A DNA stretch of 27,986 bases. Source: a virus. Location of the stretch: the IMG/VR virus record IMGVR_UViG_3300020450_000078, positions 1 to 27,986 of that record; one strand, 5' to 3'. Positions 22,146 through 26,423 of the stretch are shown one piece after another. The notes under the pieces are model-generated. The model was not told where the DNA came from. It made no database searches and worked only from the letters and a program-made list of their open reading frames with translations. Numbering within the stretch: position 1 is the stretch's first letter; every line of letters begins with the position of its first letter. The translations under genes and the position numbers were made by a program.

Positions 22146-22433
22146 TTATCTATCCTCTTTGTCTAGGGTTGATTTGTGTAATTCTTTTGCGATTTTTGTA
22201 TAGACTTGTAGATCATCGTAGCTATCAGCTTTGTAAGGTCGAAGGGTTCTAATTAGTTTTAGACCCATCATAATTTTAGCTGCTTCGTGATCTTCTAGGT
22301 CATCTTTAAGTTTGTCTTGCAAGATAACACTAAACATTACTGCTAATAATCTAAAGTTTTCTTTGTAATCCCCGTATTGTTTGGCTCGGTCTTCGAATAT
22401 TTTTTTTAATCTTTTCTCGTCAATATCATTCAT
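22146..22433 (-). CDS. MazG-related / DUF6378-like protein (95 aa)
   Basis: 95 residues, all helical: MNDIDEKRLKKIFEDRAKQYGDYKEN, then FSVILQDKLKDDLEDHEAAKIMMGLKLIRT and ADSYDDLQVYTKIAKEL. The R-x-x-x-Y-G-D...(F/L)...K-x-x-x-x-[LI]-R...D-S-x-x-D-x-x-x-Y pattern matches the small phage DUF6378 family, helical proteins related to MazG-type NTP pyrophosphatases. The usual EExxE metal motif is not complete here, so catalysis is uncertain. No clear SD precedes the ATG; a structured noncoding stretch lies upstream. Confidence 0.7.
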   Translation of the reverse strand: MNDIDEKRLKKIFEDRAKQYGDYKENFRLLAVMFSVILQDKLKDDLEDHEAAKIMMGLKLIRTLRPYKADSYDDLQVYTKIAKELHKSTLDKEDR

Positions 22434-22799: not shown

Positions 22800-23410
22800 G
22801 ATATTACTCCTTCTTTTTCTAACTCTGATTTCTTATATTCAACCCAATTCATAAGATCATTATATTGTTCAGAGTTTTTTTGATTAAGTACATCAAGCCA
22901 ATTCTTATATTGTCTTGCTAACAAGTCATCAATCCTACTGGGATATTGAGCTGATGTAATCTTTTTTTTAAACGCCTCTACATTCAATGGTTCGATGTTC
23001 CCCTCTAATTGGAGAAAGGTATGTTCTTCTTTGCTAGTTATATCTTCCTCAAGCAAACCAAAGAATGAGAGGCAACGAGCTATCGCAAATGTTTCAGCAG
23101 CTTGAAGTCCAGAGATAAAAGGTTTTACTAATTTACCCCCTTCATCATATTCAGCATACTGATTTTTTTGACTGCTATGTGCAGTTCGCTTTAACTCGCC
23201 TTTGTAGTAAAGTTCAGCTCTAACTATGTAGATGTCTTTGTGGCTGTCAACGAGGGAGGTTTTGATGGCTAAATCTTCATCTCCGGCAACAGCTTTTATT
23301 TGACCCCACGCAGATAATTTTAACCTATTTGTTTTACTATCTGTGTATAAGCCTTCTTTCCTACAAATCTTTTTATACTCTTCTAGTTTCTTTTTCATTG
23401 TATGTTCCAT
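22796..23410 (-). CDS. ERF/Rad52-like single-strand annealing protein
   Basis: 204 residues. The order of segments (helix with KKICRKEGL, the strand-turn-strand YIVRAELYYKGELKRTAHSS, then SGLQAAETFAIARCLSFFGLL at residues 100-120) matches the core of ERF-type single-strand annealing proteins; the A-x-A-E-x-x-A-I-[AG]-R-[AC]-L helix is diagnostic. These proteins anneal complementary ssDNA during phage recombination. The C-terminal ~80 residues are charged helices. SD AAGGGA is 4 nt before the ATG at 23410. It is paired with the nuclease genes upstream. Confidence 0.72.
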   Translation of the reverse strand: MEHTMKKKLEEYKKICRKEGLYTDSKTNRLKLSAWGQIKAVAGDEDLAIKTSLVDSHKDIYIVRAELYYKGELKRTAHSSQKNQYAEYDEGGKLVKPFISGLQAAETFAIARCLSFFGLLEEDITSKEEHTFLQLEGNIEPLNVEAFKKKITSAQYPSRIDDLLARQYKNWLDVLNQKNSEQYNDLMNWVEYKKSELEKEGVIS

Positions 23411-24030
23411 ATTTCCCTTGCTAGTTTTTTTTGTTTAGTTGTTAGATCAGAATAGTACCAGTGATCCAAATCTGGTTGCTCAACATATTGTGCCATAACT
23501 CTTCCATCACCATTACTTATGTCTAACAAATTTTGTATTCGCTTTGCTTTTTCAATCATATTATTAAAAGCTGCGTTCAGTTCTTTTTGGCTTGGCTTAA
23601 ATATTTTATATTCATTGGGACTGACATAAACTACATAAGCCTCTCTACCTTTTTCTCTAGCATATAAAGATGTTTGTTGTAGGTGTTCAGGCTTTATTCG
23701 TTCAGGCATTTTCTGTTGCGATACTCCATAACCTGATTTGTTTTTTTTAAAATTAGGCGGTAAAGATTTTAGTTCCATTATCTTTGTATTACTTTCAAAG
23801 TCTATCCTACCTATGATTGGAATAAATAAATCCAAATGTTTAATATCAACATATCTCTCGCATTGTACCGGCTCATCACCAAATACTTCTTCTACTGCTT
23901 TGATAATTAGTTTGATAGTTGGAAGTAAAAACTCTTTCATTGCCTCTCTGCAATGCTTATCTCTATCGTCTTTATATTCTATCTTATCTACTTTATTTAG
24001 TTCGTTTTTTAATATCTCTTGTATATTCAT
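23395..24030 (-). CDS. PD-(D/E)XK (RecB/Cas4-like) nuclease, C-terminal segment
   Basis: 211 residues holding the catalytic core: G74-R-I-D77, then E86-x-K88 (IMELKSLPP) and the QxxxY motif III (Q119...Y123 in LQQTSLYARE), the full signature of RecB/Cas4/lambda-exonuclease-like nucleases. The exonuclease probably resects DNA ends for the adjacent annealing protein. The N-terminal motif I of this family lies in the neighbouring upstream frame (23993-24289), so this may be the second half of one protein. Its own ATG has only GGAAAG as a poor SD. Stop overlaps the ERF-like gene by 16 nt. Confidence 0.82.
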   Translation of the reverse strand: MNIQEILKNELNKVDKIEYKDDRDKHCREAMKEFLLPTIKLIIKAVEEVFGDEPVQCERYVDIKHLDLFIPIIGRIDFESNTKIMELKSLPPNFKKNKSGYGVSQQKMPERIKPEHLQQTSLYAREKGREAYVVYVSPNEYKIFKPSQKELNAAFNNMIEKAKRIQNLLDISNGDGRVMAQYVEQPDLDHWYYSDLTTKQKKLAREIWNIQ

Positions 24031-24289
24031 TTATTTGCTTTCCAAATGTTCCATCTTCTTTTCTTTCGAAGATATATTTTGCGACACATTTTTGAGCTAC
24101 ATTATTTACGGAAGAACCGAAGTGAAGTTTATATCCCTTGACTGACTTTCTTCTTTCTTCTTGGTTCACCATTACATAGTCAATTATATATTTTGCTATA
24201 GGCGATGTCAGTTGAGTAGGACTAAAATGATCGTACCCTTCACCGCCTGATAGCTTCGATTTTATTACATTTACTTTTTTTATATCCAT
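23993..24289 (-). CDS. PD-(D/E)XK nuclease, N-terminal segment in a separate frame
   Basis: 98 residues: HFSPTQLTSPIAKYIIDYV, then GYKLHFGSSVNNVAQKCVAKYIF. This [HF]-S-x-[ST]-[QS]-L...P...G-x-x-x-H-x-G-x-x-[VH]-[NH] pattern is the N-terminal part of Cas4/RecB-type nucleases (motif I and preceding helix). The frame ends 38 nt into the next gene, which carries motifs II and III. A single base removed from the A6 run (complement of T6 at 24005-24010) would fuse both into a ~297-residue protein, a normal family length. First gene of the leftward operon; no SD and a short leader. Confidence 0.72.
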   Translation of the reverse strand: MDIKKVNVIKSKLSGGEGYDHFSPTQLTSPIAKYIIDYVMVNQEERRKSVKGYKLHFGSSVNNVAQKCVAKYIFERKEDGTFGKQINEYTRDIKKRTK

Positions 24290-24301: not shown

Positions 24302-24332
24302 TTGTATTATATCACAAAATGATATATGTCAA
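24302..24332. promoter_or_regulatory. 31-bp dyad operator overlapping the leftward promoter
   Basis: Interrupted palindrome: TTG at 24302-24304 and TATATCA at 24308-24314 mirror TGATATA at 24320-24326 and CAA at 24330-24332, around a 5-nt centre. Arms total 10 matched pairs per side with three unpaired bases on each. It covers both promoter hexamers and lies immediately before the Cro-like HTH gene at 24340, so that protein or another repressor is the likely ligand. Confidence 0.72.
24306..24332 (-). promoter_or_regulatory. consensus sigma70-type promoter for leftward early operon
   Basis: On the minus strand, TTGACA (complement of 24327-24332) is followed after 15 nt by TATAAT (complement of 24306-24311), preceded by TG, an extended -10. 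Both hexamers are perfect; the spacer is short by 1-2 nt. The predicted start is near 24299, about 10 nt before the ATG at 24289. Confidence 0.82.
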
Positions 24333-24339
24333 ATAAAAA

Positions 24340-24576
24340 ATGACTTTACAAGAATGGATAAAAAAAGAAGGTATATCAAACGCAGAAGCAGCTAGACGAT
24401 TAGATGTCAGCAGCTTTAATCCTTCGACTAATATAGGTCGTTGGATTAGTATTGATCCAAAATCATTTCGTATTCCCCACGAAGATAATATGTTAAAGAT
24501 CATGCGGGGTACAAACAAAGAAGTACAACCGAATGACTTTTATGAGCATATCTGGAAAATCAATAAAAAAGTTTAA
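24340..24576 (+). CDS. Cro/CI-like helix-turn-helix repressor (78 aa)
   Basis: 78 residues. Residues 2-40 form a helix-turn-helix of the Cro/YdaS type: LQEWIKKEGISNAEAARRLDV, with A-x-x-[AE]-A-A-R-x-L as recognition-helix context, then FRIPHEDNMLKIMRGTNKEVQPNDFY, the R-[IV]-P-x-x-D-x-x-x-x-I...T-N-[KG]-x-V-x-P-x-D-F-Y pattern typical of phage Cro proteins. It is divergent from the leftward operon and directly follows the dyad operator, fitting autoregulation and early-switch control. No SD precedes its ATG. Confidence 0.82.
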   Translation: MTLQEWIKKEGISNAEAARRLDVSSFNPSTNIGRWISIDPKSFRIPHEDNMLKIMRGTNKEVQPNDFYEHIWKINKKV

Positions 24577-24826
24577 GCGAGTTTTTATACACTGGATAGA
24601 TATTGAAAGTGATCCTGAATGGACTAACACTTTAGAAGGCAAAACCTATGCTCCTAATTGTTATACTATTGGTTGGTTAGCTGAAAAGAATAAAGATAAG
24701 ACTATTATATTCTCATCATATAGTTTAGACAATGAAGGTTTAATAGATGATTATGGCGACATTACCTCCTTTCCTAGCTCGGTCATTAAAAAAATTACCT
24801 ATCTTAAAGATGAAGAAAAAAAATAA
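24533..24826 (+). CDS. conserved-looking small phage protein (97 aa)
   Basis: 97 residues, overlapping the Cro-like gene by 44 nt. Two in-frame ATGs exist (24533 and 24542); AAAGAAG, 9 nt before the first, slightly favours it. The [VI]-x-[IF]-H-W-[IL]-D-I-E-S-D-P-E-W-T core, then CYTIGWLAEKNKDKTIIFSSYSLD and a FPSSVIKKI end, recur in small uncharacterised phage proteins. The alternating hydrophobic pattern suggests a compact alpha/beta fold. Function unknown. Confidence 0.68.
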   Translation: MTFMSISGKSIKKFKRVFIHWIDIESDPEWTNTLEGKTYAPNCYTIGWLAEKNKDKTIIFSSYSLDNEGLIDDYGDITSFPSSVIKKITYLKDEEKK

Positions 24827-24911
24827 AAAAAAGAAAAAGAAAAAAATATCAGGTTATTATTTTGATGGTAAGAAACTAATTGTTTTATATGAAGATATTA
24901 GTAGCTTGTGA
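24810..24911 (+). CDS. 33-aa peptide with Lys-rich N-terminus
   Basis: ATG at 24810 inside the end of the previous gene. The first 12 residues are nearly all Lys (MKKKNKKKKKKK), then ISGYYFDGKKLIVLYEDI. The switch from polylysine to an ordinary beta-like sequence, and overlap of both neighbours, make coding possible but not certain. Its end overlaps the methyltransferase start region by 23 nt. Confidence 0.35.
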   Translation: MKKKNKKKKKKKISGYYFDGKKLIVLYEDISSL

Positions 24912-25467
24912 GTATTCAGGTATTGTAAGAGATGCCTTTGCTGCCAAAGGTCATGATGCTTGGAGCTGTGATATACTACCTACTGAAAGTCTAGGTAATC
25001 ATATTCAAGGAGATGTACTAAAATATTTAGATAAAGGTTGGGATTTGATGATAGCTCATCCACCTTGCACATATTTATCTAATGCTGGTGCTAGATATTT
25101 ATATCCTAAAGGTAATTTAAACAAAGATAGATATAAGTTAGGATTAAAAGCTAAAGAATTTTTTATGGCATTATACAATTCACCAATAAATAAAATCTGT
25201 GTTGAAAATCCTATCTCAAGTAGAATTTTTGCCTTACCTAAACACACACAAACAATACAACCTTACGAATATGGTCATCCTGTTCAAAAAAAAACTTGTT
25301 TATGGTTAAAAAATTTACCTAAATTAAAACCTACAAATATAATTTATGAAAGACAAAGCACAAAAATAGCGGGTAACTGGTTTAATAAAGGTGGTAAGGA
25401 TAGACAAAAAAATAGGTCTAAATTTTTTAATGGCTTTGCTGAAGCTATGGCTAATCAATGGGGTTGA
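24889..25467 (+). CDS. short C5-cytosine DNA methyltransferase-like protein (192 aa)
   Basis: The ATG at 24889 is used; the frame opens at a TTG three codons earlier without better signals. Residues 1-30 (VACEYSGIVRDAFAAKGHDAW) give the SAM-binding motif I, PPC58-60 is the catalytic motif IV with Cys60, and VENP105-108 is motif VI. A later KKTCLWL and NWF-G end resemble motif VIII and X positions. At 192 residues it lacks a normal target-recognition domain (C5-MTases are ~300-400 aa), so it belongs to a minimal phage type or is a DNA-hypermodification-type enzyme. It may mask phage DNA from restriction. Confidence 0.82.
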   Translation: MKILVACEYSGIVRDAFAAKGHDAWSCDILPTESLGNHIQGDVLKYLDKGWDLMIAHPPCTYLSNAGARYLYPKGNLNKDRYKLGLKAKEFFMALYNSPINKICVENPISSRIFALPKHTQTIQPYEYGHPVQKKTCLWLKNLPKLKPTNIIYERQSTKIAGNWFNKGGKDRQKNRSKFFNGFAEAMANQWG

Positions 25468-25468
25468 T

Positions 25469-25906
25469 ATGAGAAACACGAAACATTTTGATAAGAACCT
25501 TTACAATCGTTGGCATCGTAGGTTCGATAACATTGCAATGGTCGATATAGATCAGGTCGAATGTTGTCAGGTTAAGGGTTGTTGGCAGCCTTTGGCTTTA
25601 GTTGAAACTGCCTATGATACTGGTAATTATTATAAAACTACGACTATTACTAAATGGCTAGGTGAAAAGGCTAATATCCCAGTATGGCTCGTATTTTACA
25701 AGAAAGACGAAATTGTAGGGGGTGATAGCCTAACCTTCAAAGTTCAGCAAATTTACCCTATCTATGGCGATTTAAAGGCTATATCTGAAGCGGAATGGGT
25801 TAGCTATTTAAGGAATTTACAACATAAGCATTACTTGGAAAAACATTGTGATAAAAAAGACGAAATACGAACAACATATCCGGTTAGCAACAAAGATATT
25901 AAATGA
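25469..25906 (+). CDS. possible nuclease-fold phage protein (145 aa)
   Basis: The ATG at 25469 starts 1 nt after the methyltransferase stop; longer in-frame extension (to 25391) overlaps it and is rejected. Sequence: LYNRWHRRFDNIAMVDIDQVECC, then PLALVETAYDTG, and a C-terminal basic part. The D-I-D-x-x-E (D28, E31) and [LV]-E (E46) pattern recalls small restriction-like nuclease-fold phage proteins, whose E-x-K is here E46-T-A48, so any nuclease activity is doubtful. The four Cys could bind metal. Confidence 0.6.
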   Translation: MRNTKHFDKNLYNRWHRRFDNIAMVDIDQVECCQVKGCWQPLALVETAYDTGNYYKTTTITKWLGEKANIPVWLVFYKKDEIVGGDSLTFKVQQIYPIYGDLKAISEAEWVSYLRNLQHKHYLEKHCDKKDEIRTTYPVSNKDIK

Positions 25907-26423
25907 CAGGGACTTTCTAAAGATACCAAAAAGAGATAGGCTCGGTTGTCTTGGTGCTTTAATTGTCTTGCTGCGTTTTGCTGATGGTAGAACACGAAAG
26001 AGTTATCCCCGTCTTCAAACCATTGCTAATCTTCTAGGTTGTGGCAAGAATAAGGCTAGGAAGAGCCTATTGTGGCTAAAAAAAGTCGGCATTATATCAA
26101 TAAAAAGGCTACAATCCACTAATTTATATCAAATCCACCCTTTTTTTTATGTAGGTGATAGTGAGGTTTCAAAACAGGTATATCAGAAGTTTCAACGGAG
26201 GACTTCTGAAGTTTCAAATCAGGTAGGTATTAATAAAACTATCTTTAATATATCTAAAACAAATCCAACAATAGATAAGATAATAAAAAAGTATAGTCAT
26301 GATAAAGAAACATTAATAGATCAATTAGCGACACTCCCCCTGACTGACCTTCAATCTGAATATAATAATGGTCTTAATAAATGGTATATGAATTTAGCAA
26401 TGAAGAAAAAGAATGGCGGGTAA
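25848..26423 (+). CDS. winged-helix replication/regulatory protein with GTG start
   Basis: 191 residues starting at GTG 25848, with GGAAA about 7 nt upstream; overlaps the previous gene by 59 nt. Residues ~55-95 make a winged helix-turn-helix: SYPRLQTIANLLGCGKNKARKSLLWLKKVGII is the classic R-x-L-x-x-x-A...G...A-x-x-x-L-x-x-L-x-x-x-G-[IW]-I pattern found in phage replication initiators and regulators (RepA_N/DnaD-like). The C-terminal half is charged and helical. Role may be replication initiation or transcription control, given its place in the early block. Confidence 0.7.
   Translation: MIKKTKYEQHIRLATKILNDRDFLKIPKRDRLGCLGALIVLLRFADGRTRKSYPRLQTIANLLGCGKNKARKSLLWLKKVGIISIKRLQSTNLYQIHPFFYVGDSEVSKQVYQKFQRRTSEVSNQVGINKTIFNISKTNPTIDKIIKKYSHDKETLIDQLATLPLTDLQSEYNNGLNKWYMNLAMKKKNGG

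What the first reader, a model, noticed from the sequence alone, without database searches (positions are those of the whole stretch)
24302..24332. Operator dyad placed over a perfect leftward promoter beside a Cro-like gene
TTGACA and TATAAT on the minus strand are both inside a 31-bp interrupted palindrome that ends 7 bp before the Cro-like ATG at 24340. This is a compact genetic switch for divergent early operons in a phage with T7-like virion genes, which usually use phage RNA polymerase control rather than repressors.
Basis: partly seen in the sequence, partly recalled or inferred. Interest (0 to 1): 0.78.

Follow-up and report, generated by a model that had tools for sequence, protein, structure and literature searches.

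The report
Pelagiphage early promoter with Cro-like gene
A marine phage of the HTVC010P type, which infects SAR11 bacteria, has a 50-base gap between its two early gene sets that holds a strong leftward promoter overlapped by a small mirror-image site just before a Cro-like regulator gene; this is probably an ordinary self-limiting early-gene control and not a lysogeny switch.

Summary
The letters are as reported. TTGACA (24332-24327) and TATAAT (24311-24306), minus strand, lie inside a 31-bp dyad that ends 7 bp before ATG 24340. Three qualifications apply. (1) The spacer is 15 bp, not 17, although the site also has an extended -10 (TGn) and is the best promoter-like site in the window. (2) The 31-bp dyad is not rare in such AT-rich DNA (10 found, 9.7 expected); only the 19-bp core TATATCA-CAAAA-TGATATA is kept in the four close relatives, and TATAAT is kept in only one of them. 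(3) No rightward promoter of comparable quality was found. The downstream protein is a Cro/XRE-fold HTH (AlphaFold pLDDT 93). Relatives occur in the prototype HTVC010P, in other cultured pelagiphages and in well over 200 viral contigs; three cultured isolates with the same layout lack the gene. No T7 RNA polymerase was found (positive control worked), nor an integrase in six records, nor any relative of the protein in 84,980 prokaryote genomes. So host-RNAP promoters are expected here, and a lysis-lysogeny 'switch' is unsupported. Most likely this is an autoregulated Cro-like repressor acting on a lambda-like divergent early region. The strongest rival is mirrored extended -10 promoter elements that mimic an operator. 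New member of a known kind.

The parts
24308..24326 (.). 19-bp dyad core TATATCA-CAAAA-TGATATA, candidate operator of the Cro-like protein
   Evidence: 7/7 arm pairs with a 5-nt centre; invariant in the 4 close relatives; the 25-bp pattern TATATCA-N5-TGATATATGTCAA occurs in only 4 of 2.9 million viral contigs, all with this gene; the symmetry alone is not rare
24302..24332 (.). 31-bp interrupted palindrome as reported (10 of 13 arm pairs)
   Evidence: present but expected by chance about 10 times per window; outer part not symmetric in L002/L004/L005
24327..24332 (-). -35 element TTGACA of the leftward promoter
   Evidence: exact consensus, conserved in all close relatives
24306..24311 (-). 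-10 element TATAAT of the leftward promoter, with upstream TG (extended -10); spacer to -35 is 15 bp
   Evidence: TATAAA in L002, L004 and L005
24303..24327 (+). possible weak mirrored rightward promoter TTGTAT-15-TATATG with extended -10 (TGA)
   Evidence: sequence inspection; no good rightward promoter in the weighted scan (best + strand score 5.1 against 11.5 for the leftward one)
24340..24576 (+). Cro/XRE-like HTH protein, 78 aa
   Evidence: AF2 pLDDT 93.3, five helices; best folds YdaS, C.Esp1396I, CylR2, Xylella prophage Cro (weak E-values); relatives hit HTH_3, RstR, P22_Cro; start conserved in relatives
23993..24289 (-). first leftward gene, 98 aa, N-terminal part of the early nuclease
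   Evidence: aligned by eye with the N-terminus of the single ~300-aa 'putative nuclease' of HTVC010P/034P/100P; split also present in L002, L003 and L005
23395..24030 (-). second leftward gene, 211 aa, C-terminal part of the nuclease (Cas4/exonuclease-like)
   Evidence: weak PHROG exonuclease/Cas4 hits; comparison with HTVC010P nuclease
24533..24826 (+). next rightward gene, small protein (phrog_25889)
   Evidence: its relative is the first rightward gene in HTVC100P, where the Cro gene is absent
24892..25467 (+). DNA methyltransferase-like gene of the rightward set
   Evidence: phrog_757, E 4.8e-58
25848..26423 (+). replication-initiation (DnaD / O-like, HTH_36) gene of the rightward set
   Evidence: phrog_186, phrog_270, phrog_391; PF13730

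Best explanation
This is the divergent early control region of an HTVC010P-type pelagiphage. Host RNA polymerase is proposed to transcribe leftward (nuclease and other recombination/replication genes, ending in a DnaA-domain-IV gene) from TTGACA-15-TATAAT with an extended -10, and rightward (Cro-like gene, methylase, DnaD/O-like protein, small terminase) from a weaker overlapping promoter. The 78-aa Cro/XRE-like protein, made from the rightward transcript, probably binds as a dimer to the 19-bp dyad core 24308-24326, which lies between and over the -35 and -10 of the leftward promoter and next to its own start. It would thereby block RNA polymerase and turn down the early genes and itself (Cro-type negative feedback). 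Shown: promoter letters, dyad, gene layout, HTH fold, conservation of the core with the gene in close relatives, no RNAP or integrase found. Inferred: dimer binding to this dyad, repression, rightward promoter, timing.
For: Best promoter-like site in the window lies inside the dyad. Core invariant in four relatives although the sequence to its left differs; in L005 an extra 66-aa gene sits directly behind the same promoter/leader. A 25-bp pattern with the core is found only with this gene. The adjacent gene is a confident Cro/XRE-type HTH fold. More distant relatives carry conserved ATAAC[C/T]-N5-GGTA at the matching place with an invariant C:G pair (28/28) and one A:T to G:C double change (L226/L227). 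Host-RNAP dependence: no T7 RNAP, working control, and PMC10504331. An XRE-type regulator of Pseudomonas prophage origin, LfsT, recognises NAAC-N(5,8)-GTTN (PMC9769523).
Against: The dyad by itself is near chance level for AT-rich DNA. Pair covariation in the HTVC010P-like group is no better than shuffled, and the double change in the other groups is one evolutionary event. The gap-length scan favours odd gaps in general (5 and 7), not 5 alone. The close relatives are too similar (Cro gene 2-10 nt differences of 237) for conservation of the core to be strong evidence. No clear rightward promoter and no Shine-Dalgarno before the Cro-like ATG, unlike in other groups. Three cultured isolates do without the gene.
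Confidence: 0.55

Rival explanations
1. The dyad is not an operator but the by-product of two mirrored, overlapping divergent promoters: each direction uses an extended -10 (TGA-TATA) and the -35 of one overlaps the -10 of the other, which makes the DNA palindromic. Control would come from RNA polymerase binding one way or the other; the Cro-like protein acts elsewhere.
For: TGATATA read on both strands is an extended -10; TTGTAT-15-TATATG mirrors TTGACA-15-TATAAT; near-symmetry of the whole gap 17/21. Bacterial bidirectional promoters from pseudo-symmetric sequence, with RNAP competition, are established (PMC12825309).
Against: The rightward half is a poor promoter (4/6 -10 with G at the last position). 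In relatives the invariant inner C:G pair falls at a position that extended -10 recognition does not need. Start-site spacing of about 35 bp differs from the 10/18/23 bp reported for shared -10 bidirectional promoters.
Confidence: 0.25
2. The protein binds DNA here but mainly as an activator or bending factor that corrects the 15-bp spacer of the leftward promoter, in the way MerR-type activators work on mis-spaced promoters.
For: Dyad core lies exactly between -35 and -10 with a non-optimal spacer; Cro/XRE proteins can activate as well as repress (PMC9769523 abstract).
Against: MerR proteins act on over-long spacers (general knowledge); the site overlaps the -10 hexamer; an extended -10 can make the promoter independent of the -35 spacing.
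Confidence: 0.08
3. Chance dyad in AT-rich intergenic DNA; the promoter is real but the palindrome has no function.
For: Core and 31-bp dyad occur at chance frequency across the window; shuffles of the 75 nt reach the same palindrome score in 53 of 150 cases.
Against: Placement directly over the promoter and beside an HTH regulator; the core is kept while the flank to the left changes; related block conserved in other groups.
Confidence: 0.12

Closest known systems
Phage lambda / P22 OR-OL early region with Cro
   Same: Divergent early region: leftward nuclease/annealing genes, rightward cro-like gene followed by replication genes; small HTH protein beside a dyad over an early promoter.
   Different: One dyad and not three operators each side; no cI or integrase found; no sequence-level membership of the Cro families for the window protein; gene dispensable in related phages.
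HTVC010P-type pelagiphages (HTVC010P, HTVC034P, HTVC203P, HTVC204P, Lederberg)
   Same: Same gene order; each encodes a relative of the 78-aa protein as first rightward gene, directly after the divergent gap.
   Different: Their gaps hold a clear rightward promoter with a Shine-Dalgarno and no TATATCA-N5-TGATATA core; HTVC024P/035P/100P lack the gene.
Bidirectional (pseudo-symmetric) bacterial promoters (PMC12825309)
   Same: Overlapping divergent promoter letters, possible orientation competition of RNA polymerase.
   Different: There the two directions share one -10 with starts 10-23 bp apart; here -35 and -10 elements are mirrored and predicted starts are about 35 bp apart.
Controller proteins of restriction-modification systems (C.Esp1396I) and YdaS/CylR2
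   Same: Fold neighbours in the structure search; small XRE-type regulators, some autoregulatory.
   Different: Foldseek E-values 0.6 and higher, sequence identity 18-28%; no restriction system noted here.

Membership tests
Cro/XRE-type helix-turn-helix regulators | Five-helix HTH fold | tested here: met
   AF2 pLDDT 93.3, H3-10, H14-20, H28-35, H48-57, H64-77; top fold neighbours are XRE/Cro proteins, though none with E below 0.6
Cro/XRE-type helix-turn-helix regulators | Significant profile match of the protein itself | tested here: inconclusive
   No Pfam hit for the window protein; relatives in its alignment hit HTH_3 (best 1.9e-6, 8 of 25) and NCBIfam RstR (best 4.6e-5, 8 of 25)
Cro/XRE-type helix-turn-helix regulators | Binds an operator beside its own gene | not testable with these tools
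   needs EMSA or footprint
Lambda-type lysis-lysogeny switch | Opposing CI-type repressor gene | tested here: not met
   The leftward neighbours are nuclease parts; no CI/LexA-like hit among the window proteins scanned. Not every window ORF was scanned and the record is a fragment, so absence from the full genome is not shown
Lambda-type lysis-lysogeny switch | Integrase or other lysogeny module | tested here: not met
   PF00589 absent in the window, its 34.5-kb relative and four other records; controls ring; no relatives of the Cro-like protein in 84,980 genomes
T7-type (Autographiviridae) transcription | Single-subunit phage RNA polymerase | tested here: not met
   PF00940 absent in the window, L002 genome, HTVC010P, HTVC034P and HTVC100P; present in HTVC019P control, E 4.2e-106
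HTVC010P-type pelagiphages | Shared gene order and homologous early and virion genes | tested here: met
   Pelagibacter phages are 19 of 24 records with DNA matches to the early region; layout with nuclease, annealing protein, DnaA-C, DnaD-like gene, TerS; podovirus head-tail connector, tail and internal virion proteins
Bidirectional promoters | Shared symmetric -10 with starts 10-23 bp apart | tested here: not met
   The two -10 candidates lie at opposite ends of the core (24306-24311 and 24322-24327), about 35 bp between predicted starts (sequence)

The most novel reading that the evidence does not exclude
In abundant lytic marine phages without repressor, integrase or own RNA polymerase, one near-symmetric 50-bp element acts as a two-way early promoter whose direction is set by RNA polymerase competition and by a Cro-like protein, and the protein-operator pairs have diverged between phage lineages (TCA/TGA, ACC/GGT, GCC/GGC inner half-sites), giving lineage-specific early-gene shut-off or mutual exclusion between co-infecting phages.
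Probability: 0.12. Interest if true: 0.55.

Novelty: new member of a known kind. Interest (0 to 1): 0.3.

Why it matters
HTVC010P-type phages are among the most abundant pelagiphages (second most abundant known group according to PMC12753301), yet how they time transcription with only the host RNA polymerase is not established. If true, this names the protein, the promoter and the site of their early control in a testable 50-bp piece, and provides well over 200 related loci for comparing operators with recognition helices. It does not change what kinds of regulation are known.

Tried and rejected
Significance of the dyad from single sequences: not reached. Covariation of a 5-nt-centred dyad in the HTVC010P-like group: equal to shuffles. 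Unbiased gap-length scan over 22 divergent upstream regions: gap 5 z = 2.4 but gap 7 z = 3.0 and most odd gaps raised, so no clean preferred spacing. Natural control of phages without the gene (HTVC100P, 024P, 035P): best gap-5 scores 4.3, 5.9 and 3.7 against 4.0-7.4 in the cultured gene carriers and 9.3 in L002; right direction, too few, overlapping. Extra operator copies in the window: none above chance. Prophages carrying the gene: none found. A frameshift error in the nuclease was suspected and rejected, because relatives keep the same split. T7-like transcription control and a lambda-like bistable switch: rejected on missing RNAP, integrase and repressor. A profile search with alignment A2 could not be run because it has no conserved stretch; Du et al. 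2021 on HTVC010P-type phages is not held in the library.

Full report
The window is part of an HTVC010P-type pelagiphage. Its early region matches Pelagibacter phages at 64-73% identity in short pieces. The gene order agrees with HTVC010P, HTVC034P, HTVC100P and others: virion genes (podovirus head-tail connector, tail and internal virion proteins), then a leftward block (DnaA-C domain gene, single-strand annealing position, nuclease) facing a rightward block (Cro-like gene, small gene, methyltransferase, DnaD/O-like gene, small terminase). Between ATG 24289 (left) and ATG 24340 (right) there are 50 bp.

The observation. The letters are right. The leftward promoter is TTGACA-15-TATAAT with TG at the extended -10 position, 16 nt before the leftward ATG and without a Shine-Dalgarno. 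It is the best promoter-like site of the window in a weighted scan even though the 15-bp spacer is penalised; a standard 16-18 scan misses it. A perfect hexamer pair at spacer 15-19 is expected 0.14 times per window and in 0.09% of such 50-nt gaps. The dyad is a different matter: the 7/7 core with 5-nt centre occurs 4 times in the window against 3.8 expected, and the 31-bp version 10 times against 9.65. The near-symmetry of the whole gap (17 of 21 pairs) is rare but includes the A/T tracts before both start codons and was chosen after the fact. The rightward promoter is not convincing: the mirror site TTGTAT-15-TATATG does not score, and the best + strand site (5.1) is far below the leftward one.

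The protein. The window protein has no Pfam hit of its own. An alignment of 25 relatives gives a confident five-helix model (pLDDT 93.3). The best solved-structure neighbours are mostly small XRE/Cro proteins (YdaS, C.Esp1396I, CylR2, Xylella prophage Cro) with weak E-values. Members of the alignment hit HTH_3, P22_Cro and the RstR repressor family. So 'Cro-like' is right as a fold statement.

Relatives. Close relatives (Cro protein 97-99% identical, L002-L005) keep the 19-bp core and the -35 without change. To the left they differ: TATAAT is TATAAA in L002, L004 and L005, and L005 carries an extra 66-aa gene placed exactly behind the same promoter and leader. The pattern TATATCA-N5-TGATATATGTCAA exists in only four of 2.9 million viral contigs, all of them these relatives. 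However, the Cro genes themselves differ at only 2-10 of 237 nt among the window and these four, so this conservation is weak evidence by itself.

More distant relatives come in three further groups. Group A (HTVC010P-like, 32-39% identical to the window protein) has a clear rightward promoter TTGTCA-N16/18-TATATA and a Shine-Dalgarno; a 5-nt-centred dyad there does not co-vary beyond shuffles. Groups B and C (about 50% identical) keep a block ATAAC[C/T]-N5-GGTA at the place that corresponds to the window core, with one C:G pair in 28 of 28 sequences and one A:T to G:C double change in L226/L227. This suggests a family of operators with a 5-nt centre and changing inner half-sites, but the gap-length scan was not clean and the double change is a single event.

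Life style. No T7-type RNA polymerase was found in the window, in its 34.5-kb relative or in HTVC010P, HTVC034P and HTVC100P, with HTVC019P as positive control. No integrase was found in six records. No relative of the protein was found in 84,980 prokaryote genomes, with two queries. These genome scans reach close relatives only. The literature states that phages of this type depend on host RNA polymerase and carry two transcriptional regulators (PMC10504331). The cultured phages HTVC100P, HTVC024P and HTVC035P have the same divergent layout without the Cro-like gene, so the protein is not a general necessity.

Mechanism. The best-supported reading is Cro-type negative feedback: host RNA polymerase starts the early genes, the Cro-like dimer then occupies 24308-24326, which overlaps the leftward -10 and abuts the -35, and shuts the leftward promoter and probably its own gene. 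Dimerisation, binding, repression and the rightward start are inferred. The main rival is that the symmetry simply reflects two mirrored extended -10 elements (TGATATA on both strands), as in pseudo-symmetric bidirectional promoters (PMC12825309). The invariant inner C:G pair in groups B and C argues against that for the relatives, not for the window itself. A third possibility, a chance dyad, cannot be excluded by sequence alone.

Verdict. A real and well-placed early promoter beside a real Cro-like gene; a plausible operator; no evidence for a lysogeny switch; no conflict with T7-like control because this phage type has no such control. It is a new member of a known kind, useful because the early regulation of this abundant phage group has not been worked out.

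Noticed in passing
L102-L164 (for example L107, L115, L132), upstream of the Cro-like ATG: 23 of 42 distinct group B upstream regions contain a DnaA box TTATNCACA within 75 nt of the Cro-like start (0.34 expected in shuffles; sequences are related), and all eight phage records tested encode a DnaA domain IV (PF08299) protein. The early region of these phages may be under control of that protein or of host DnaA, or may be an origin.
   Followed up: partly
23395-24289 (minus strand): The early nuclease, one ~300-aa gene in HTVC010P, HTVC034P and HTVC100P, is split here into two overlapping genes (98 and 211 aa); the split is kept in the relatives L002, L003 and L005, so it is not a sequencing error.
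   Followed up: yes
L019 5848-6234 (HTVC010P record 30415-30801): The deposited HTVC010P gene starts too far upstream: homology and a Shine-Dalgarno place the Cro-like start at record position 30568, so the annotation hides the early promoter inside a reading frame.
   Followed up: yes
L005 left of 913: A 66-aa gene with a CPYCGK end is inserted directly behind the leftward promoter and leader, ahead of the nuclease gene.
   Followed up: partly
L001, L253, L254: HTVC100P, HTVC024P and HTVC035P have the same divergent early layout but no Cro-like gene; the next rightward gene follows the promoter directly.
   Followed up: yes
22146-22433 (minus strand): Small leftward gene with DUF6378, matched by PHROG families annotated as phosphofructokinase.
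   Followed up: no
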